DNA from: Caballeronia sp. NK8
GTDB taxonomy: Bacteria > Pseudomonadota > Gammaproteobacteria > Burkholderiales > Burkholderiaceae
Length of the DNA: 64,000 nt
Assembly (NCBI RefSeq): GCF_018408855.1
Contig: NZ_AP024322.1
Span: 434,001 to 498,000, forward strand
Reading direction: 5' to 3'
Made by a program: the position numbers and the translations under genes. Under the pieces are notes generated by a model that worked only from the letters and a program-made list of their open reading frames with translations, was not told the origin of the DNA and searched no databases. Within the stretch, counting starts at the first letter, position 1, and every line of letters starts with the position of its first letter. Positions 38,953 to 51,941 of the stretch are shown here, piece after piece.

Positions 38953-39017
38953 GAAATCGGCAGTAACATTGGTCGTTGCGCTACGCCGCTGTTGCTCCGC
39001 TACCAGTGAGGTCCCTC

Positions 39018-40838
39018 ATGAGGCACGACGAAGCCTTGAAGGCGCTCCTTAGGTACTTACAGGACAAAAAAAGATATCCCGTGGTCGGACTGAAGGGTCA
39101 CTGGGGCAGTGGAAAGACCTATCTCTGGAAGGCGGCCGAACAGGCTCTGCATTCGAGTGCTCCGATGGCAGAAGTTTCGAGGGGAGAGGTTGCTCAAAAA
39201 GCTTTCGACTCGCCACCTCGGGTTCCGGCCTTGTACTGCTCGCTTTTCGGCCTTGGCAGCATCGAGGAAATTCGCAGCAAGTTATTGACATCGCATCTAC
39301 GCACTGCAGCACCTCGCGCTGCGGTGGTGCATGAGCAGTGGGGCAAGCTCAAGGACAAGCTCGGCCTCCTGTGGAACGCTGGCGGAGGCATCGGGAAGGC
39401 CGCTGGCGGTGCGGTGGACCTCGTGACGAGCGCCGCATCGGAAAGATACATGGACATTGTGCTCCAGGACAGGCTTGTGGTGCTTGACGACCTTGAGCGC
39501 AGAAGCATGTCACTAAGCATCATCGAAATCCTTGGATTTATCGAGTCGCTCAAAGCAGAAAACTGTCAAGTGCTAGTCATCTTCAACGAGGAGAAAATTC
39601 CCGATGAAGAATCTCGAAAGGCGCTTGCGTCGTTTCGCGAGAAGGTTTTCGACGTTGAAATTAGGTTGGCGACAGAGCCAGTAGAAGTTTTCTGTATCGC
39701 GGCCAAAGCTTACAACGGCTCGGATTTGGAGCCGTTTTCTCTCAGAGAAGATTTTCTTGAGGCGAGAATCACGAATATCAGAATCGCAAAGCGCGCAATC
39801 GATATCTTCGCCGATGTAGACCGAATTGCTGCAGCCGTGGGCGACGGCAACGATTGGTGGACCGTTAGGCCAATCTACGCGCGCGCAGTGGCGACCGCGA
39901 CAAACTTGTTTTATGAAGGAGAGGCGGACGGCCCGGCGCTGAAGGAATTGCTGCAGGCCATGCGCGCTGAGCATCCGGCGGTTTCTGACGCCCGAGTTCT
40001 AAGGTACTTCCCCAATGCCGAATATGAATTTGTGGAAGCAGTCGCGCAGCACTTAGAAACGGGTGCGTTGCCCGAGGCGGCCTATCGGAACGCCATCATG
40101 CTGGCCGTTTCCCGCGTAGGTCGGCGAATCGCTGACGAGACAGTCCGCGCCTGGATACGCTCGTGCTCGGACCCGACCACGAAAACGTACGACCTCACGC
40201 TCGAAATTACCAAGATACACCTACAAATTCCGTTGTTGAGTCCGGAAGTCCTTTCTGATTTCGTCTGCGCAGCCCGCACGGTAACAGATAAGCAGAATGT
40301 GCTCGAAGCACTTGCGATGGCTAGGCCCTTTGTCGAACTTCCGCCCGGCGTCGACGCCGCCGCGAAAGGAGAATGCGACGAACGTCAATTGTGGTGCGCA
40401 ATCGGCGCTTTTCTGAAGGTCGATACATGGCACGAAGACAACGACACCCGTTCGCCCTTCGACCCGCTCTGGGTGTTTTATGTGAGCGACAATCTCACGC
40501 AGTATGAGATTCTTGTCATCTTCATGACGGCTAGTGTCGATGCTTACTTCCATTTACTCATGGCCCCGAGCGAAGGAGAGCCAAATTTTCCAACGATGTT
40601 GGTGTTTTTGAAGAAATGGGCAGACGAGCGGGTCGGAGCGGGCGCAACTAACCTCGGGCGCGCTCTGGTGCGCGTGCGAGCACTGGGCACCCGACGCGCC
40701 CAACTCATCGAGGAATATCTGTCCGCAAGCGACGCGCGGGAGGTCATTGCTTCCATCACCGACGGTCAGCTAGGAGCAGCGCAAAGTTTGGACGAAGGTT
40801 CTCAGCGAGGACCCAGCGCGGAACTCCGCTCGCCTTGA
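39018..40838 (+). CDS. KAP-like P-loop NTPase
   Basis: 606 residues from ATG 39018 (GTGAGG upstream). N-terminal Walker A GHWGSGKTYLW (about 28), Walker B RLVVLDDLERR (about 154) with the extra aspartate of the KAP/STAND group, and a possible sensor at VLVIFNEEKIP (about 190). There is a Gly-rich segment before Walker B (GGGIGKAAGGAVDLV) which could be a membrane insertion, as in KAP NTPases. The C-terminal 350 residues are helical without a known effector. KAP-type ATPases occur in anti-phage systems. The next gene starts 0 bases after its stop. Confidence 0.75.
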   Translation: MRHDEALKALLRYLQDKKRYPVVGLKGHWGSGKTYLWKAAEQALHSSAPMAEVSRGEVAQKAFDSPPRVPALYCSLFGLGSIEEIRSKLLTSHLRTAAPRAAVVHEQWGKLKDKLGLLWNAGGGIGKAAGGAVDLVTSAASERYMDIVLQDRLVVLDDLERRSMSLSIIEILGFIESLKAENCQVLVIFNEEKIPDEESRKALASFREKVFDVEIRLATEPVEVFCIAAKAYNGSDLEPFSLREDFLEARITNIRIAKRAIDIFADVDRIAAAVGDGNDWWTVRPIYARAVATATNLFYEGEADGPALKELLQAMRAEHPAVSDARVLRYFPNAEYEFVEAVAQHLETGALPEAAYRNAIMLAVSRVGRRIADETVRAWIRSCSDPTTKTYDLTLEITKIHLQIPLLSPEVLSDFVCAARTVTDKQNVLEALAMARPFVELPPGVDAAAKGECDERQLWCAIGAFLKVDTWHEDNDTRSPFDPLWVFYVSDNLTQYEILVIFMTASVDAYFHLLMAPSEGEPNFPTMLVFLKKWADERVGAGATNLGRALVRVRALGTRRAQLIEEYLSASDAREVIASITDGQLGAAQSLDEGSQRGPSAELRSP

Positions 40839-41285: not shown

Positions 41286-41708
41286 TTACACCGCCGCGTC
41301 CTTCAGTTTCTTAAGCGCACGCACTTTCAGCTTGACCGAGGCCGGCTTGGCATCAAACCACCTATCCTGACCCGTGAACGGGTCTTTGCCGAAACGCCGC
41401 TTCTTTGCTTCCACTTTCTGCACGTTGATTTTCAGCAGGCCCGACAGCGTGAATTCACCGAGGCCCTTCTTATGAACAGAGCCCAGAATCGTGTCTTCAA
41501 GAGCTGCCAGCACTGCCTTCACCTGCTTCGGTTCGACGCCTGCCTGTTCTGCGACATACGTGGTCAGCGATGCCTTAGTGAACTGGTCTTTCACCGGCTT
41601 GAGCGTTGCACCGGCAGTTGCTACCTTCTTCGCCGGCGCTGCTGCCTTTTTCGTTGCGGTCTTGGTTGCAGCCTTCTTGGCTGCAGATTTCGCCGTCTTC
41701 GTTGCCAT
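41286..41708 (-). CDS. HU-type DNA-binding protein with Lys/Ala tail
   Basis: 140 residues from ATG 41708. The N-terminal 40 residues are an AAK-type tail (KTAKSAAKKAATKTATKKAA) like eukaryotic H1 and the tailed HU proteins of some Betaproteobacteria. The HU fold follows: LTTYVAEQAGVEPKQVKAVL, GEFTLSGLLKINV, KRRFGKDPFTGQ. The arm tip has GKDPFTGQ in place of the usual GRNPQTGE. It is probably a nucleoid protein of the island, and could silence or shape it. Confidence 0.88.
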   Translation of the reverse strand: MATKTAKSAAKKAATKTATKKAAAPAKKVATAGATLKPVKDQFTKASLTTYVAEQAGVEPKQVKAVLAALEDTILGSVHKKGLGEFTLSGLLKINVQKVEAKKRRFGKDPFTGQDRWFDAKPASVKLKVRALKKLKDAAV

Positions 41709-41997
41709 GTGCATCCTCATTGTCGTAGATTGAGAGACGCTTAAGACGAAGCACCCCGCAGCGCCGAGCGCTCGGCACATGCGCCGTCGTAAGCTGTCGG
41801 CTAGCGTAGCAACGGTTTATCTGGTGCGCAATCGGAAAAACGCTTGAAACATGGGCTTTTCTGCGTTTATCTCTCGAATACAACGCCAAAACGTGACGCC
41901 GAGAAGCAGAGGAGGGTGCGCGACGCAGTTCGACAGGTTTTCGGACCTGCAAAGGCCGCATTGATTGGCATCAGCGTAGGGCAGGCTCGACCTTGAA

Positions 41998-43590: not shown

Positions 43591-44015
43591 TCCTTGCCCG
43601 TCCACCCTCGTCGGTTGTAGTCATATGCGACGACGTAATGGTACCAATTGCGTGCTGCGAGTCCGAAGAGGAGATTTCAGATTCGTCGCGCATACCCCGT
43701 ACTTATCGTGAGTGACCGGGTCCCGGCGATTAGCATGGTTGGGCGCCTCTCTGTCCGACAGACATGGCCGGAATGTTTCAACGTGACCAACAGAAGCTTT
43801 GTCGTGTGTCGCAATCAATCACACACGTCGACGCCGCGACTTGACATCCTAAAAAGGAGAAATCCAGAATTGTTCCAAGTAAACATAAAGTTAGGCCGTC
43901 GGTAGTGTCGGAGCTGTGCTTGGCACAGAACGTGGATATGGTTAAGCGAGCGAAAATTCGAACCGCTCAATCAAAATCCGTCCCTTGCCCCACACCACTT
44001 TTAGGGTGAATCGAA
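43591..44015. other. Intergenic, little seen
   Basis: There are 425 bases with no long coding frame. A TTGACA at 43841 and an AAGGAG at 43853 followed by an 11-codon TTG frame are visible, but I see no complete promoter. Low coding potential. Confidence 0.35.
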
Positions 44016-44207
44016 ATGAGCACACTGACTATTGTTGACCTGCATCACGAGGAAGAACTGTCTCGTACTGAGATGGCCCGCGTTGTCGGTGGGCATGATG
44101 TGGAAAAAGAAAAAGCGCTCGTTGAACTCTACGGCGTTATCAACTCGATGAACACTTTGGAGAACACGCCCGACCCGGCTCCAGGTCACGTGTCGATGAA
44201 ACTGTAA
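44016..44207 (+). CDS. Small peptide with double-glycine leader
   Basis: 63 residues; AGGGTGA lies 6 bases before ATG 44016. Residues 15-26 read LSRTEMARVVGG, matching the double-glycine leader rule L-S-x-x-E-M/L-x-x-V/I-x-G-G position by position. Cutting after Gly26 gives a 37-residue core with no cysteine, starting HDVEKEKALVELYG. Such leaders direct export and cleavage by C39-peptidase ABC transporters (bacteriocins, pheromones) or occur in RiPP precursors. No transporter or modifying enzyme is within the window. Confidence 0.65.
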   Translation: MSTLTIVDLHHEEELSRTEMARVVGGHDVEKEKALVELYGVINSMNTLENTPDPAPGHVSMKL

Positions 44208-44866: not shown

Positions 44867-45826
44867 TTACGCTGCAAGCCGGTGCTCATAGTACGGCCTG
44901 TCTCTATCATCAAGAATCGCATACATTGCCTTCAAATCCGAAGCTTCTGGGTCCAACCACGCGTCGATGTTTTCAGTCTTGATTGGCACAATGCACCTGT
45001 CGTGGCCGGCAGCCTCGACTTCTGGCGGCGGCTCATCAGTGATGGCAGCGAACGATAGCAGGTCGGGTTGCCCTGGCGCGGTCCATCTCGACCATAGGCA
45101 AGCAACGTGCATCAGTTGGCCGTTGTTCGGACGAAACTCGAGGACGACATTCTCGTCTTTCTCATGAGTCTCCAGCAACGTGCCTTCCATCTTTGCTTTG
45201 CTGACGTTCTCGTAGAAGACATCAACAAGTATCACGCCATGCGTGTAGCCGAAACACGGCTTCCAGAATCCTTCGAGGTTGTCGCGTCGTGCGTTGTAGG
45301 TGCCTGGATACTTCACGTCGTAGTTCGCCGGTTTGCCAGCAATTCGGCACTGGTAACGCATCGGCTTGACCACGTACTTGCCGTTCTCCATGACAAGCAC
45401 AGGTGCGTAGGTTCCAGGAAAAATTCGTGAGTCGCGTGGCTTCGCCTCGGTTCGGTTGATGTCCTCGAGGCGGCGCAGCGACGTGTCAATTTTGTCTGCC
45501 GCGATGCGCTTACTCTCCGTTGCGGCCTTGGTCACCTTGGTCTGCAGCGCTCGCTCAGCGTCCGCGAGGCGAGTCCGTTGTTTGAAAAGCTCCTGCTCAA
45601 GCTTGGTCGTTTGCTCCGCGTTGAACCGGTCGATAGACGCTTTGATTTGTCGCTCTTCATCTGTTTGCGGGTCGCGAAAACTGTCGTCGACCGCCTTCGG
45701 AATCTTTGCTCTGCTGCCCTCGGCTCGTTCGAAGTAGAGTCGCGCAAATTCTTCGATGTCCATGTGCGCGCCGAAGGTCTTCACGTACTTGCGATAGTCC
45801 GCTTGAATTTGGGCCGAATAACACAT
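44867..45826 (-). CDS. SRAP domain protein (HMCES/YedK-like)
   Basis: 319 residues. The mature N-terminus is MCYSAQ: Cys2 forms a thiazolidine crosslink with abasic sites in single-stranded DNA, shielding them. Further SRAP marks are YNARRDNLEGFWK (about 182), the catalytic glutamate region VDVFYENVS (about 206) and GHDRCIVPIK (about 280) with the active histidine. A coiled-coil insertion (residues 60-135, EQELFKQRTRLADAERALQ) makes it longer than YedK (222). It ends a three-gene operon pointing away from the LexA box, so SOS control is likely. Confidence 0.88.
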   Translation of the reverse strand: MCYSAQIQADYRKYVKTFGAHMDIEEFARLYFERAEGSRAKIPKAVDDSFRDPQTDEERQIKASIDRFNAEQTTKLEQELFKQRTRLADAERALQTKVTKAATESKRIAADKIDTSLRRLEDINRTEAKPRDSRIFPGTYAPVLVMENGKYVVKPMRYQCRIAGKPANYDVKYPGTYNARRDNLEGFWKPCFGYTHGVILVDVFYENVSKAKMEGTLLETHEKDENVVLEFRPNNGQLMHVACLWSRWTAPGQPDLLSFAAITDEPPPEVEAAGHDRCIVPIKTENIDAWLDPEASDLKAMYAILDDRDRPYYEHRLAA

Positions 45827-46250: not shown

Positions 46251-46583
46251 TCATCTAAATACAGTTGCAGACGACGCGGCGAGATTCAACCGTATCGCGC
46301 CTGCCCCGTCGTCTGCGCTGCTGCATCGCACACCTGTTCCGACGCATGCGCCGTCGCAACTCTTGCAGTAGTGTCGGTCGCGCACGCTGCCGTCGACCGC
46401 CCAGCGATTGAAATCGTCAACAGGTTTCATGCCGACCGTTCGGCCAGCTTCCTGCGCGAAAAAGGTCGGCTCTCCGGCCTTGCCACGTGCGACGGCCTCG
46501 TCAATGGTCGCATCACCGAAGGCGTCACGCAGCTTCGACACGAAATCCGCAATTTCCGGCATCGGGTGCTTTCGCACAAGCAT
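46251..46583 (-). CDS. Hypothetical protein, first gene of the SRAP operon
   Basis: 110 residues from ATG 46583 (a TTG at 46589 is an alternative). The N-terminal helices (MPEIADFVSKLRDAFGDATI) are followed by a Cys-containing part (HYCKSCDGACVG). Its start is 68 bases from the LexA box. No recognised domain. Confidence 0.6.
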   Translation of the reverse strand: MLVRKHPMPEIADFVSKLRDAFGDATIDEAVARGKAGEPTFFAQEAGRTVGMKPVDDFNRWAVDGSVRDRHYCKSCDGACVGTGVRCSSADDGAGAIRLNLAASSATVFR

Positions 46584-46650
46584 ATCCAAACGCGTCTGCT
46601 CTGACGACCAAAAAGGGGCAATTCACTGCTTCGGATTTTGAGTTACGATA

Positions 46651-46666
46651 CTGTATAAATATACAG
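46651..46666. promoter_or_regulatory. LexA (SOS) box
   Basis: CTGTATAAATATACAG is a perfect CTG-N10-CAG palindrome with an AT-only core. It is 12 bases before imuA and 67 before the first gene of the divergent SRAP operon. A -35-like TTGAGT (46639) and -10-like TATACA (46660) overlap it, so LexA binding would block imuA transcription and possibly both directions. Confidence 0.92.
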
Positions 46667-46678
46667 TGCTTTCGCGAA

Positions 46679-47392
46679 ATGGCTGCCTTGCCCCAACACA
46701 TCGAGTCGATTCATCCGAGCCTCTGGCGCGGGTCTCAGCTCGCCCGTGCGTACGGCAAGACGGTCGATACGGGGTATGCGGCTTTAAGCGCCGAGCTGCC
46801 TGGCGGCGGCTGGCCACTTGGAGCGTTGGTGGAGTTGCTCGTCCAGCAGCCAGGGATAGGCGAGATGCGGTTGTTGAGGCCAGCGCTCTCCGAATTGAGC
46901 GCACGACCAGTGGTGCTTTTGCAGGCACCGCACGTTCCTAACGCCTTGGCGTTTTCGTTTCTCGGGCTGCCGATGAACAAGCTGATGAGACTGCGAGCGC
47001 CGAAGACGGCGGACGCGCTCTGGTGCGCCGAGCGCGTGCTTCAGGCCAAAACCTGCGGCGCCCTCATTTTCTGGCAGCAGCACATCCGGGTCGAGGCACT
47101 GCGACGGCTTCACCTCGCAGCGCAGGCGACGGAAACCTTGCTGGTGTTAATCAGGCCGCTGGCCAGCGCTCAAGACGCATCGCCGGCGACGCTCCGATTG
47201 GGAGTCAGACCGGCTGACGGCGGCCTCGTCGTCGATGTTGTAAAGCGACGAGGCCCGACACGAACCGAAACATTGTCCGTCGCCCTGCAACCGTCACCGA
47301 TTCTGCTCAGCCCTTATGGCCGTGTTCGTCGCCATCTTCCTGCCCCGGCTTTCGCTGGAGGTGTTCCGTCCGCGGTGGTCACCGCCGACTGA
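46679..47392 (+). CDS. imuA: ImuA, SOS mutasome RecA-like protein
   Basis: 237 residues from ATG 46679. RecA/SulA-like fold: GYAALSAELPGGGWPLGALVE near residue 35 corresponds to the Walker A region with no lysine, typical for ImuA. C-terminal VVDVVKRRGPT is the family signature. ImuA supports ImuB and DnaE2 in damage-induced mutagenesis. The predicted transcript start lies only a few bases before the ATG and no ribosome site is visible. It overlaps imuB by 77 bases. Confidence 0.85.
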   Translation: MAALPQHIESIHPSLWRGSQLARAYGKTVDTGYAALSAELPGGGWPLGALVELLVQQPGIGEMRLLRPALSELSARPVVLLQAPHVPNALAFSFLGLPMNKLMRLRAPKTADALWCAERVLQAKTCGALIFWQQHIRVEALRRLHLAAQATETLLVLIRPLASAQDASPATLRLGVRPADGGLVVDVVKRRGPTRTETLSVALQPSPILLSPYGRVRRHLPAPAFAGGVPSAVVTAD

Positions 47393-48779
47393 GCACGGGT
47401 GCGTCGTGCTGGAGCGCGACAAGGTGATTGTGATGGACGCAGTAGCGCGAGAAGCTGGGGTGCTCCCAGGAATGAAGCGAGGCGGAGTGACCACGCTCTC
47501 GCCTGACGCGGCGGTCTACGACAGAAGTGTAGAACGCGAGCGGGAGATGCAGCGCGAAGTCGCTTTCGGCTTATTGCGCTTCTCGCCGCAGGTTGCCGTT
47601 TGCGACGAAGAAACTATCGTAGTGGACGTGACGGCGAGCCTGCGTCTGTTTGGCGGCATCCGCAGTATCTGTTCGCAGTTGCGAAACGTTGTGAAGTCGA
47701 TAGGCGTGACAGCACGCATGAGCGTCGCACCAACCGGGCAAGGCGCATGGCTGCTCGCGAAGCGAGGCCGATGTCGCGTGCTCAAGATGCGCTCGCTCGA
47801 GCGAAATCTCGATGCGCTTCCGTTCATGGTCGTGCAAGAGGTTCGCGCCTACGCGGATTGGTTTCAAGGTCTCGGCTGCCGAGCGCTAAGTGACATCCGG
47901 CGCCTTCCGCGCGCTGGACTGAAGAAGAGGTGCGGTGTGGATTTGCTCGACTCTCTCGACCGCGCCTACGGTCTTTCGCCAGAGCTGTATCAGTGGCTCG
48001 ATGTGCCTCCAACCTTCAGCGCCCGAACCGAACTGCCCGACCGCGTCGAACACGCCGAAGCCGTGCTTTTCTCCGCGCGACGCCTCATCGTGCAGCTGTG
48101 CGGTTGGTTGAGCGCGCAGCAACTCGCGCTGACACACGCCACTGTATCCCTCGAGCACGAACGCGGCCGACAAGCCGTCGAGCCCACCATTCTTGAAATC
48201 GCTCTTGCAGAGCCGACCTGGCATGAAGAGCACCTCATGCGCTTGCTCAAGGAGCGGCTCGGGCGCACTGAACTGCCGGCTGCTGTGCTTGCCGTTCGAC
48301 TGACGGCCTCCAAAGTAGAGCCGGCCGAGCCGCCGAGCGACTCGCTGTTTCCTGACCCTGGTGGGTCTACCGAAGACCACAACCGCCTCATCGAACTCCT
48401 CGTTGCGAGACTCGGTGCCGAGAACGTGTTGCGGCCGGCGCCGACCTCCGACCACAGGCCGGAACACGCAAATCGTTGGGTCTCGGTTCAGGACGAGGCG
48501 AAGCCGACCATACCGCCGGTAGGACTGCCGCGTCCGACCTGGTTGCTCGATGAGCCCGTTCGCCTCATGGTGAAGAACCATCGCCCGTTCTATGGCTCGC
48601 CGCTCAAGCTCGTTTCAACTGGCGAGCGCATTGAAGCAGGATGGCACGACCGCGAACTGGTTACCCGCGACTATTACGTCGCCGAAGCGGCCGACAAGAG
48701 TTGCTATTGGATTTACCGCGAGCGACCGAGCGTGACGTCGGACGAAACGCGCTGGTTCCTCCACGGCCTGTTTGGGTAA
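47316..48779 (+). CDS. imuB: ImuB, Y-family polymerase-like protein
   Basis: 487 residues. Little-finger and palm order as in Y-family polymerases, but the catalytic acidic residues are missing, as in ImuB: the first conserved position reads AIFLPRLSLEVF and the VDVTASLRLFGG segment replaces the S-x-D-E motif. C-terminal half ends in YWIYRERP. ImuB tethers the mutasome to the sliding clamp. Start is inside imuA, translation coupled. Confidence 0.9.
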   Translation: MAVFVAIFLPRLSLEVFRPRWSPPTEHGCVVLERDKVIVMDAVAREAGVLPGMKRGGVTTLSPDAAVYDRSVEREREMQREVAFGLLRFSPQVAVCDEETIVVDVTASLRLFGGIRSICSQLRNVVKSIGVTARMSVAPTGQGAWLLAKRGRCRVLKMRSLERNLDALPFMVVQEVRAYADWFQGLGCRALSDIRRLPRAGLKKRCGVDLLDSLDRAYGLSPELYQWLDVPPTFSARTELPDRVEHAEAVLFSARRLIVQLCGWLSAQQLALTHATVSLEHERGRQAVEPTILEIALAEPTWHEEHLMRLLKERLGRTELPAAVLAVRLTASKVEPAEPPSDSLFPDPGGSTEDHNRLIELLVARLGAENVLRPAPTSDHRPEHANRWVSVQDEAKPTIPPVGLPRPTWLLDEPVRLMVKNHRPFYGSPLKLVSTGERIEAGWHDRELVTRDYYVAEAADKSCYWIYRERPSVTSDETRWFLHGLFG

Positions 48780-48791
48780 GCAGGTGTCGTC

Positions 48792-51700
48792 GTGGACTTC
48801 CCCTCGTTGGCGTTGCCGGATTACGCGGAGCTATTCGCGTTCACCAACTTCTCTTTCCTCCGTGGCGCCTCCCATGGCGAAGAACTGGTGTTGCGTGCTT
48901 CGCAACTCGGATATTCGGGACTTGCCGTCACCGATGAATGTTCGCTCGCCGGCGTAGTTCGCGCTCATGTACAAGCGAAGGAGGAGAAGCTTCCGCTCAT
49001 CATCGGGTCATTTTTTCAGCTTGTGAACGCGGACAAGAGTCCAGCGTTTGGTCTCATCCTGCTTGCCCAGAATCGCAACGGCTACGGCAATCTTTCCGAG
49101 CTCATCACGTTAGGGCGCATGCGAGCAGCCAAGGGCGAGTACCTTCTGACGCCGCATGACATCTCAAAGCCCGAGAGAGAGTACGCGCATCTCAAAGGTA
49201 TGCCTGATTGTCTCGCTATTCTGGTGCCCGATTTTCCCGCGAAGGAAGACGCGCTCGCTGTTCAACTCGAATGGATGAACGACGTTTTCGCTGAGCGTGC
49301 TTGGGTGGGGCTCACGTTGCACCAGCGCGCAATGGACGACATTCATCGCGGCGCCGTCGAGTTCGTGGCGGACCAGTACCGGGTACCCGTCGTAGCGACA
49401 GGAAACGTCGTCATGCACGTGCGCTCGAGGAAGCCGTTGCAGGACACGATGACGGCGATTCGAATCGGGAAGCCCGTTGCAGATTGTGGCTATGACCTCG
49501 CGCCGAACGCGGAAGGACATCTTCGGTCGCGACTGCGTCTTGCAAATCTGTATCCGCCGCACACGCTCTCGGAGACGCTCAACATCCTAGAGCGATGCAA
49601 CTTCTCCCTGGACGAACTTCGATACGAGTATCCGGATGAACTCGTGCCTGATGGGTTCACTCATGAAGCTTACCTACGTCAAGAAACTTACATCGGCGCG
49701 CATCGAAGATTTCCGGCTGGCATCCCGCACGCGGTTCAAGAGCAAATCGAGCATGAGCTACAGCTCATTCGGGAGCTCCAGTACGAGGCTTACTTCCTCA
49801 CGGTCTACGACATTGTCCGTTTTGCGCGCAGTCAGCACATCCTGTGTCAAGGCCGCGGGTCAGCGGCGAACAGTGCGGTCTGTTATTGCCTCGGCGTAAC
49901 CGAGGTCGACCCGTCGCGCGGCAACATGCTGTTCGAACGATTCATCTCGAAGGAGCGTGGTGAACCGCCGGACATCGACGTGGATTTCGAGCATCAGCGG
50001 CGTGAGGAGGTCATCCAATACATCTATCGGAAGTATGGACGGGACCGAGCCGCGATTGCAGCGGCTGTCTCGACGTATCGTCCGCGCGGCGCGCTCCGCG
50101 AAACCGGCAAAGCGCTCGGCATCGACCCGCAAATCGTCGATAGAGTCGCCAAGTCACATCAGTGGTTCGACCATTCGCAAGACCTTCTTCGACGGTTCGC
50201 TGAGTCTGGCCTGGACCCCGAGAATCCGCTCATCGGTTTGTGGGCGACGTTGGCAGCGCAAATCCTCAATTTTCCGCGCCATCTGTCGCAGCACTCCGGC
50301 GGCTTCGTCATCAGTCGCGGGAAGCTGACAAGGCTCGTTCCTGTTGAGAACGCGGCGATGGCGGACAGGTCGGCGATTCAGTGGGACAAGGACGACCTCG
50401 AAGCGCTTGGCCTGCTGAAAATTGATGTTCTTGCACTCGGCATGCTGTCGGCGATTCGTCGCACGCTCGACATCGTGTCGGAGCAGCGTGGCGAGCGGTT
50501 CGAGATGCAGGACATCCCGCCTGAGGACGACGCCACATACGAGATGATTTCTCGCGCAGACACGATGGGCGTCTTCCAGATTGAGTCGCGTGCGCAGATG
50601 AGCATGCTGCCTCGCATGAAACCGCGAGAGTTCTACGACTTGGTCATCGAAGTGGCCATCGTGAGACCAGGCCCAATCCAGGGCGGTGCAGTACATCCAT
50701 ATCTGCGACGTCGGCAAGGAATCGAACCTGTCACATATCCAAGCGAAGCATTAAAGGTCGCCCTCGGTCGGACGCTTGGGGTACCCATCTTTCAAGAGCA
50801 AGTCATGCAAGTTGCCATCCTGGCTGCTGGGTTTACTCCGGGCGAAGCGGACCAGCTCCGCAGAGCCATGGCAGCGTGGAAGCGCAAAGGTGGCCTCGAC
50901 CGGTACTACGACCGCATCGTCAACGGAATGATGGAGCGAGGATACGAACGCGATTTTGCTGAATCCATCTTTCAACAGATTCATGGCTTCGGCGAGTATG
51001 GCTTTCCAGAAAGTCATGCTGCATCTTTCGCGTTGCTCGTCTATGCGAGCAGTTGGTTGAAATGCCACGAACCGGAGGCATTTCTCGCCGCGATGCTGAA
51101 CAGCATGCCGCTTGGTTTTTACTCGGCATCGCAGCTCATTCAAGACGCCCAACGCCATGGTGTGAAGGTCCTACCCGCAGACGTCACAATCTGCGGCTGG
51201 GACTCGGTTCTCGAGAGCCATGATGCTCGAGTGAAGCCAGCAGTTAGACTCGGTCTGTCTCTGCTAAAGGGAATGAAGGATGGCGCGGCCGAGCGAATCG
51301 AAGCCGCGAGAGCGGTTAAGAGGTTTGCAAGCGTCAGCGATTTGGCAAAACGCGCTCAGCTGGACAGGAAAGACCTCCAGGTTCTTGCAGCCGCGAATGC
51401 GCTTTCATCATTGGCTGGCAATCGCCGCGAAGCGCTCTGGCAGTCGGTCGCCGCTGTGCCAGACCGCGACCTTCTCCTCGATGCGCGCGTAAATGATGGA
51501 ACGCCCGCGCTCGGCGCACCGTCCGAAGCGGAAGACATCATTGCTGACTTCAACGCCATGAGTCTTACGCTCGGCCGCCACCCACTTTCGCTTTTGCGGC
51601 CAACCCTCCTTGAGCAACGTCTTGTGCCTGCGTCAACGCTTATGACCTATCCGAATGGTCGGCTCGCTCGCGGATGCGGACTCGTCACAGTGCGACAGCG

Positions 51701-51941
51701 CCCAGGTACGGCAAAGGGCGTTATGTTCATGACTATCGAAGACGAGACGGGAAACGTGAACGTAATCGTTTGGCCTTCTCTGCTCGAGAAGTATCGGCGT
51801 GAAGCGCTCGGTGCGGCGCTACTTGCGGTGTACGGAACGTGGCAGTGCGAAGGCGAAGTACGACATCTCGTTGCGCAGAGACTCGTCGACATGTCTCACT
51901 TGCTCGGCGGTCTCACAACGGTGAGCCGCAATTTCTGCTGA
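48792..51941 (+). CDS. dnaE2: Error-prone DNA polymerase III alpha subunit DnaE2 (ImuC)
   Basis: 1049 residues from GTG 48792, 12 bases after imuB. N-terminal PHP domain (FTNFSFLRGASHGEELV, about 18), palm with PPDIDVDFEHQRREEV (about 392) holding catalytic aspartates, GRGSAANSAVCYCLG (about 354), and C-terminal OB-fold (VMFMTIEDETGNVNVI, about 975). Length is normal for DnaE2. It is the polymerase that copies across lesions in the ImuA-ImuB-DnaE2 mutasome; SOS-induced through the LexA box at 46651. Confidence 0.95.
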   Translation: MDFPSLALPDYAELFAFTNFSFLRGASHGEELVLRASQLGYSGLAVTDECSLAGVVRAHVQAKEEKLPLIIGSFFQLVNADKSPAFGLILLAQNRNGYGNLSELITLGRMRAAKGEYLLTPHDISKPEREYAHLKGMPDCLAILVPDFPAKEDALAVQLEWMNDVFAERAWVGLTLHQRAMDDIHRGAVEFVADQYRVPVVATGNVVMHVRSRKPLQDTMTAIRIGKPVADCGYDLAPNAEGHLRSRLRLANLYPPHTLSETLNILERCNFSLDELRYEYPDELVPDGFTHEAYLRQETYIGAHRRFPAGIPHAVQEQIEHELQLIRELQYEAYFLTVYDIVRFARSQHILCQGRGSAANSAVCYCLGVTEVDPSRGNMLFERFISKERGEPPDIDVDFEHQRREEVIQYIYRKYGRDRAAIAAAVSTYRPRGALRETGKALGIDPQIVDRVAKSHQWFDHSQDLLRRFAESGLDPENPLIGLWATLAAQILNFPRHLSQHSGGFVISRGKLTRLVPVENAAMADRSAIQWDKDDLEALGLLKIDVLALGMLSAIRRTLDIVSEQRGERFEMQDIPPEDDATYEMISRADTMGVFQIESRAQMSMLPRMKPREFYDLVIEVAIVRPGPIQGGAVHPYLRRRQGIEPVTYPSEALKVALGRTLGVPIFQEQVMQVAILAAGFTPGEADQLRRAMAAWKRKGGLDRYYDRIVNGMMERGYERDFAESIFQQIHGFGEYGFPESHAASFALLVYASSWLKCHEPEAFLAAMLNSMPLGFYSASQLIQDAQRHGVKVLPADVTICGWDSVLESHDARVKPAVRLGLSLLKGMKDGAAERIEAARAVKRFASVSDLAKRAQLDRKDLQVLAAANALSSLAGNRREALWQSVAAVPDRDLLLDARVNDGTPALGAPSEAEDIIADFNAMSLTLGRHPLSLLRPTLLEQRLVPASTLMTYPNGRLARGCGLVTVRQRPGTAKGVMFMTIEDETGNVNVIVWPSLLEKYRREALGAALLAVYGTWQCEGEVRHLVAQRLVDMSHLLGGLTTVSRNFC

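What the first reader, a model, noticed from the sequence alone, without database searches (positions are those of the whole stretch)
44016..44207. Orphan peptide with a textbook double-glycine leader
LSRTEMARVVGG fits the leader consensus at every key position and has a good ribosome site. The 37-residue core has no Cys and a helical, charged start. No C39 transporter is near, so export would need one elsewhere. It may be a bacteriocin, signal or RiPP substrate.
Basis: partly seen in the sequence, partly recalled or inferred. Interest (0 to 1): 0.7.

Follow-up and report, generated by a model that had tools for sequence, protein, structure and literature searches.

The report
Double-glycine peptide with a distant exporter
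A small gene in a soil bacterium makes a peptide that is probably cut at a Gly-Gly site and pumped out by one exporter encoded elsewhere in the genome, as one of a scattered set of such peptides that seem to share a control switch; the peptide's task outside the cell is still unknown.

Summary
ORF 44016-44207 (63 aa) is a conserved gene: two searches gave 49 homologues, those with names from four Burkholderiaceae genera and one MAG, and all 49 keep GG. It stands alone, but the genome has one C39 exporter with the catalytic cysteine, a cNMP-C39-ABC protein in an apparent operon with TolC, FHA, HlyD, PpiC and a sigma54 activator. All 17 of 299 family genomes with the peptide carry it, against 103 of 299 overall. 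Fifteen genes of this genome share the leader; two flank the exporter genes. Such genes often have TGTYGG/CCRACA boxes above a sigma54 -24/-12 promoter; in ten related genomes 12 of 38 paired boxes sit just upstream of leader genes, 0.015 expected. The window gene has this layout with a changed -12. Best reading: a precursor exported in trans as part of a sigma54-type set. Lack of a gene that travels with it, and a conserved acidic core, favour a matrix or signal peptide over a bacteriocin; this last step is inferred.

The parts
44016..44207 (+). precursor gene, 63 aa plus stop
44016..44093 (+). double-glycine leader, 26 codons ending in VVGG
44094..44204 (+). core, 37 codons, predicted helix then Pro-rich tail NTPDPAPGHVSMKL
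44005..44009 (+). ribosome binding site GGTGA
43948..43968 (+). GAGCG...CGCTC hairpin that falls at the predicted 5' end of the transcript; one compensatory change in the B. stagnalis locus L034 (GAGCAG...CTGCTC)
43921..43935 (+). sigma54-type -24 element TGGCAC with GTGG at the -12 position (TGC in the Cupriavidus and B. stagnalis copies)
43881..43893 (+). AAACATAAAGTTA, IHF-like (consensus recalled, 11 of 13 positions here); similar stretch conserved in much of the family
43787..43792 (+). CCAACA box, presumed half-site of the activator
43806..43826 (+). second, diverged dyad GTGTCGC...ACACAC where relatives have TGTYGG/CCRACA boxes

Best explanation
The gene encodes a double-glycine precursor of a secreted peptide. 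A sigma54 activator, most likely the one encoded with the exporter, binds TGTYGG/CCRACA boxes roughly 90-165 bp above a -24/-12 promoter and switches on a set of leader-sharing precursors scattered over the genome, this one included. The single cNMP-C39-ABC protein recognises the shared leader, cuts after GG and exports the 37-residue core through HlyD and TolC, perhaps helped by the PpiC protein. Outside, the conserved acidic core most likely acts as a surface, matrix or signalling peptide. Shown by sequence: gene, leader, GG conservation, shared leader class, single C39 with Cys, co-occurrence, boxes and promoters of the set. Inferred: cleavage, export, which activator, activity of the changed -12, and all of the outside function.
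For: 49 of 49 homologues keep GG. 15 genes of this genome match the leader model at E <= 6e-4 (15 of 19 rows; 4 rows at E > 1 set aside), two of them flanking the exporter genes (C2:806220, C2:819330). Of three C39-domain proteins only L066's has the Cys (DCG; the others read DPG and DYG). 17 of 17 peptide genomes carry the full exporter against 103 of 299 (Fisher 5e-9; in the genus 13 of 13 against 29 of 41, 0.004; kinship not corrected). 37 of 38 partial (mostly leader-only) matches lie in exporter genomes, 12 of 38 within 17.4 kb of it. 12 of 38 paired boxes in ten other genomes lie within 327 bp upstream of one of 78 leader genes, 0.015 expected. 31 of 57 other leader genes have TGGCAY-N6-TGC in -160 to -30, shuffles 1 of 1140. 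Boxes in 25 of 27 family loci against 0.107 in random windows.
Against: At the -12, the window copy and most Caballeronia and Paraburkholderia copies have TGA, TGG or TGT, not TGC: with the strict GG-N10-GC scan only 3 of 26 family rows score 8 or 9 of 9, so this promoter may be weak or may use another sigma factor. One search's strict pattern missed the window gene. Box spacing at C2:806220 differs and its best -24 reads CGGCA. 26 of 38 paired boxes are not upstream of a listed leader gene; the reversed control gave 14 places, whose positions were not listed. The ten genomes are congeners and some hits are orthologous, so they are not independent. Nothing measured shows export, and the link from activator gene to boxes rests on neighbourhood alone.
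Confidence: 0.66

Rival explanations
1. Bacteriocin or microcin: the exported core kills relatives, the producer being protected by an unlinked or unrecognised immunity protein.
For: Leaders of this kind serve class II bacteriocins and microcins (recalled); the Pfam Mersacidin model matches the leader at 16.8 bits, below its cut-off of 27.6. The peptide is patchy: 17 of 299 family genomes. Two small genes beside it recur in 11 and 10 of 31 regions, all Caballeronia, and could be partners there.
Against: No neighbour is shared across genera. The core is conserved, median dN/dS 0.15 against 0.22 in the leader. It is acidic, has no Cys, and its helix is not amphipathic beyond shuffles.
Confidence: 0.17
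2. Extracellular signal: the core is sensed by the producer, for instance by a histidine kinase or by feeding back on the sigma54 set.
For: Core conserved across four genera; two or more copies in several genomes; FHA protein and activator encoded with the exporter and a PP2C gene beside it; a histidine kinase gene lies downstream in the B. stagnalis locus.
Against: The kinase is not a shared neighbour; no receptor was identified; no transcriptional test.
Confidence: 0.25
3. Precursor of a modified peptide (RiPP), with modifying enzymes in trans.
For: Weak leader matches to RiPP models, all below cut-off (TIGR04149 14.2 bits against 25; 20.1 for the 64-aa relative). The PpiC protein matches TIGR04500 at 88 bits, cut-off 180.
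Against: No modifying enzyme among the exporter genes scanned or shared near the gene; no Cys in the core.
Confidence: 0.07
4. Not exported: a small intracellular protein whose N-terminus resembles a leader.
For: No export has been measured; the whole protein is conserved.
Against: The same leader class precedes seven cores that look different in this genome, two beside the exporter genes (compared by eye); 17 of 17 co-occurrence.
Confidence: 0.05

Closest known systems
EbfG1-4 with PteB, Synechococcus elongatus (PMC4997328, PMC9981879; passages read)
   Same: Several small GG-motif proteins and a C39 transporter whose conserved Cys is needed for their efficient secretion; biofilm and matrix role shown there.
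   Different: ebfG1-4 are cotranscribed in a cyanobacterium; here the genes are scattered, in betaproteobacteria, with sigma54-type promoters. Cores were not compared, and no role was tested.
Long-type C39 transporters with N-terminal CAP_ED domain, with HlyD and SurA, cyanobacterial groups I, II and VI (PMC3140520; passages read)
   Same: Same domains in the exporter and the same partners, HlyD and a rotamase protein. In the plasmid collection the exporter's relatives include Nostoc HK-01 at 44% over 70% of it.
   Different: Here also TolC, FHA and a sigma54 activator, with PP2C beside; most leader genes lie away from the exporter.
HetC, Nostoc PCC 7120 (PMC10986499; passages read)
   Same: cNMP-C39-ABC exporter with no GG gene found beside it.
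   Different: HetC's substrate is unknown; here a candidate substrate set is in hand.
NHLP, NHLP-Burk and N11P precursors (PMC2887384; passages read)
   Same: Peptide precursor families of Burkholderiales and cyanobacteria.
   Different: Nitrile-hydratase- or Nif11-related leaders, many beside TOMM enzymes; the window peptide hit none of those models at E <= 10.

Membership tests
double-glycine substrates of C39 exporters | short leader with set hydrophobic positions, ending in GG | tested here: met
   49 of 49 homologues keep GG
double-glycine substrates of C39 exporters | a C39 exporter with catalytic Cys in the genome | tested here: met
double-glycine substrates of C39 exporters | cleavage after GG and secretion | not testable with these tools
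   needs mass spectrometry
sigma54-type set of leader genes (as proposed here) | TGTYGG/CCRACA boxes above the promoter | tested here: met
   25 of 27 family loci; 12 of 38 places in ten other genomes
sigma54-type set of leader genes (as proposed here) | -24 GG and -12 GC | tested here: inconclusive
   -24 kept; -12 GC only in the Cupriavidus row and two B. stagnalis rows
class II bacteriocin or microcin | immunity gene with the structural gene | tested here: inconclusive
   no neighbour shared across genera in 31 regions, two recur within Caballeronia; ORFs under 50 aa not compared
class II bacteriocin or microcin | killing activity | not testable with these tools
   none
EbfG-type matrix protein | role in biofilm; amyloid in EbfG1-3 | not testable with these tools
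   precedent only, PMC9981879
NHLP, N11P or other RiPP precursor | model hit over the curated cut-off | tested here: not met
   four hits up to E 10, all below cut-off

The most novel reading that the evidence does not exclude
Soil Burkholderiaceae run a dispersed GG-peptide secretome: one exporter with a cNMP-binding domain and its own sigma54 activator serve about fifteen precursors with several different cores at some eight places in one genome, tandem arrays included, so that peptide export is turned on as one programme (matrix or signalling). The window peptide is a strongly conserved single-gene member found at many chromosomal places, with a hairpin at the predicted transcript start and a lineage-specific change at -12.
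Probability: 0.45. Interest if true: 0.72.

Novelty: new variant of a known kind. Interest (0 to 1): 0.55.

Why it matters
Substrates of C39 exporters that lie away from their exporter are hard to find; HetC's is still unknown (PMC10986499, passages). Here leader, exporter, co-occurrence and a shared upstream signature point the same way, which gives a testable list of substrates, one candidate activator and one peptide conserved across four genera. The ten paper searches made (open-licence PMC only, listings capped at 10-20) showed no description of this set in Burkholderiaceae; subscription papers, such as the 2004 screen by Dirix and others that these papers cite, were not seen.

Tried and rejected
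Phage or plasmid cargo: no phage match; one match in the plasmid collection, on an 873-kb B. stagnalis replicon typed non-mobilizable.

Conserved neighbour (immunity, enzyme, receptor): over 31 regions the widest cluster beside the gene itself (23 regions) fell apart under stricter linking; the widest was an antisense shadow of the gene itself (16), then the two flanking genes (11 and 10 regions, all Caballeronia), then common families such as LysR regulators at varying distance.

The -24 element alone (up to 2 mismatches) was uninformative: 63 hits, 44 in the reversed control. The strict box-to-promoter pattern gave 5 hits, control 1, one of them above the 99-aa leader gene next to the exporter genes; it missed the window gene because of the -12. 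The box pattern was set after seeing three of the genes it recovers (3 of 6 places, control 3), hence the test in ten other genomes; one of the 12 hits there is a copy of the window family. Azoarcus paper PMC3262810 (passages) is not about this. Amphipathic helix: not supported. Annotation of the exporter region in named records: none given there.

Mended on checking: one search's leader dN/dS (0.281) was inflated, because four loci have a one-residue insertion in the leader and were aligned from GG without a gap. Without them (19 loci) it is 0.217 for the leader and 0.147 for the core. Odds of the best reading moved from 0.68 to 0.66 and of the bacteriocin rival from 0.15 to 0.17 for that.

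Rows left out: L010, L011 (as the window) and L070-L072; one search used 24 loci and misplaced the -24 in L016; L031 appears twice in the family rows, and one relative (L046) was counted there among the 'other' genes; one search kept 83 of 88 genes after removing near-identical upstreams. In one search one of the 38 partial matches (G243, residues 13-43 in a 730-aa frame) is probably chance. The partial exporter match of G242 (916 bits) was not counted among the 103.

Full report
Observation. The ORF at 44016-44207 is as described: leader of 26 residues to VVGG, Cys-free core of 37, RBS GGTGA. 42 homologues came from the whole-protein search and 7 more from a search with residues 24-63. Alignment A1 has 43 rows with M20, G25, G26, D28, K31, E32, A34, L35, V36, P52 and P54 invariant; the 7 new ones also keep GG. 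Where a source gives a name it is Caballeronia, Paraburkholderia, Cupriavidus or Burkholderia, apart from one MAG labelled Bacteroidota (P0039); many have no name.

Selection. One search gave median dN/dS 0.281 for the leader and 0.139 for the core helix over 23 loci; the leader value was inflated by four loci with a leader insertion. Over the 19 loci without it the medians are 0.217 (150 of 171 pairs usable) and 0.147 (80 of 171). Synonymous change in the core is near saturation (mean pS 0.71), so its figure is rough. Both parts are constrained, the core somewhat more. The predicted structure is one main helix, 29-50, and a loose tail, with modest confidence.

Context. 26 loci came from genome contigs. 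The two genes that flank the window gene recur in up to 11 and 10 of 31 regions, all Caballeronia; elsewhere the neighbours differ. In B. stagnalis they are a phospholipase D family gene and a histidine kinase. In the window the neighbours are an unnamed gene upstream, and an unnamed gene then SRAP downstream, all on the other strand. The gene thus looks like a single-gene unit.

Exporter. PF03412 finds three places in the genome. L066's protein carries cNMP, C39, ABC membrane and ATPase domains and lies in an apparent operon TolC - FHA - HlyD - PpiC - C39 - sigma54 activator with gaps of 138, -23, 37, 23 and -4 bases. Its C39 has EEMDCG, GYHYI and ADPA; the other two C39 proteins lack the Cys, as HlyB-type transporters do (catalytic pattern and HlyB comparison recalled). 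In 299 family genomes the exporter is present over 1600 bits in 103, counted from the rows. The peptide is present full length or nearly so (residues 9-63 in G136) in 17, all of them exporter genomes. Kinship is not corrected for.

A leader class. Besides those, one search gave 38 partial matches, nearly all to the leader alone; 37 are in exporter genomes and 12 within 17.4 kb of the exporter. A nine-row leader model found 15 genes in this genome at E <= 6e-4: the window gene, its paralogue (81%), proteins of 64, 71, 79, 99 and 108 aa, and eight copies of an 85-aa protein in two arrays on C6. The 99-aa gene lies about 0.3 kb upstream of the TolC gene on the same strand. The 108-aa gene lies about 1.5 kb beyond the other end of the exporter genes, with the PP2C gene between.

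Upstream signature. Across family loci with different neighbours some 280 nt upstream show the same elements: CCAACA/TGTYGG boxes, an IHF-like site (consensus recalled), TGGCACAGAACGTG, a GAGCG/CGCTC hairpin and the RBS. Boxes are within -262 to -170 in 25 of 27 loci (21 with two or more; a few loci are near-identical), against 0.107 and 0.009 in random windows. A pattern set from this family alone, before the upstream DNA of any other leader gene had been looked at, CCAACA-N8-20-TGTTGG, gave 5 places in the genome (control 2), one of them 0.3 kb above the 108-aa leader gene by the exporter. Other leader genes have canonical sigma54 elements: 31 of 57 with 9 of 9 and 13 of 57 with 8 of 9 scored positions, against 1 and 19 of 1140 shuffles. 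In ten other genomes of the genus CCRACA-N13-14-TGTYGG lies at 38 places (reversed control 14, positions not listed); 12 of the 38 are within 327 bp upstream of one of 78 leader genes, against 0.015 expected. The ten genomes are related, so the hits are not independent.

The promoter of the window family. The -24 element and spacing fit sigma54 (consensus recalled), but the -12 GC is present only in the Cupriavidus row and the two B. stagnalis rows; elsewhere it is GA, GG or GT. Counting 12 nt on from the -12 (rule recalled) puts the transcript start at about 43945. The hairpin begins at base 3 or 4 of the predicted transcript in 22 of 24 loci; the other two are L016, whose -24 the script misplaced, and the Cupriavidus locus L028, which lacks it. 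That agreement, and a compensatory change in B. stagnalis, support the start site. Whether sigma54 still serves the changed -12 is open.

Mechanism and function. The steps from transcription to export are set out in Best explanation. The outside role is inferred: the precedent for several small GG proteins with one C39 exporter is EbfG/PteB, where they enable biofilm (PMC4997328, PMC9981879; passages). For the bacteriocin and RiPP readings the expected partner genes were not found here. Novelty is judged as a new variant of a known kind: GG precursors and cNMP-C39 exporters are known, while the scattered set with a common sigma54-type signature was not seen in the papers searched.

Noticed in passing
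46487-51941: A protein without a Pfam hit (ImuA-like by position, recalled), then an IMS-family protein and a DnaE-type polymerase: looks like an imuA-imuB-dnaE2 cassette (name recalled), near an SRAP gene at 44867-45826.
   Followed up: partly
38976-40838: KAP-family P-loop NTPase gene.
   Followed up: no
41286-41780: HU-type DNA-binding protein with a Lys/Ala-rich N-terminal extension.
   Followed up: no
L163 3753-4600 and 14797-16665: Two arrays (3 and 5 copies) of 85-aa GG-leader genes, mostly 296 bp apart, with Asn-, Ser- and Gly-rich cores that look like matrix-type proteins.
   Followed up: partly
L067 9744-11894; L068 8772-10337: Two C39-like ABC proteins without the catalytic Cys; two tandem 333-aa paralogues follow the one in L068.
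   Followed up: no
window 43935 and relatives: The C of the -12 GC is kept in the Cupriavidus and B. stagnalis copies and changed in the other copies examined.
   Followed up: partly
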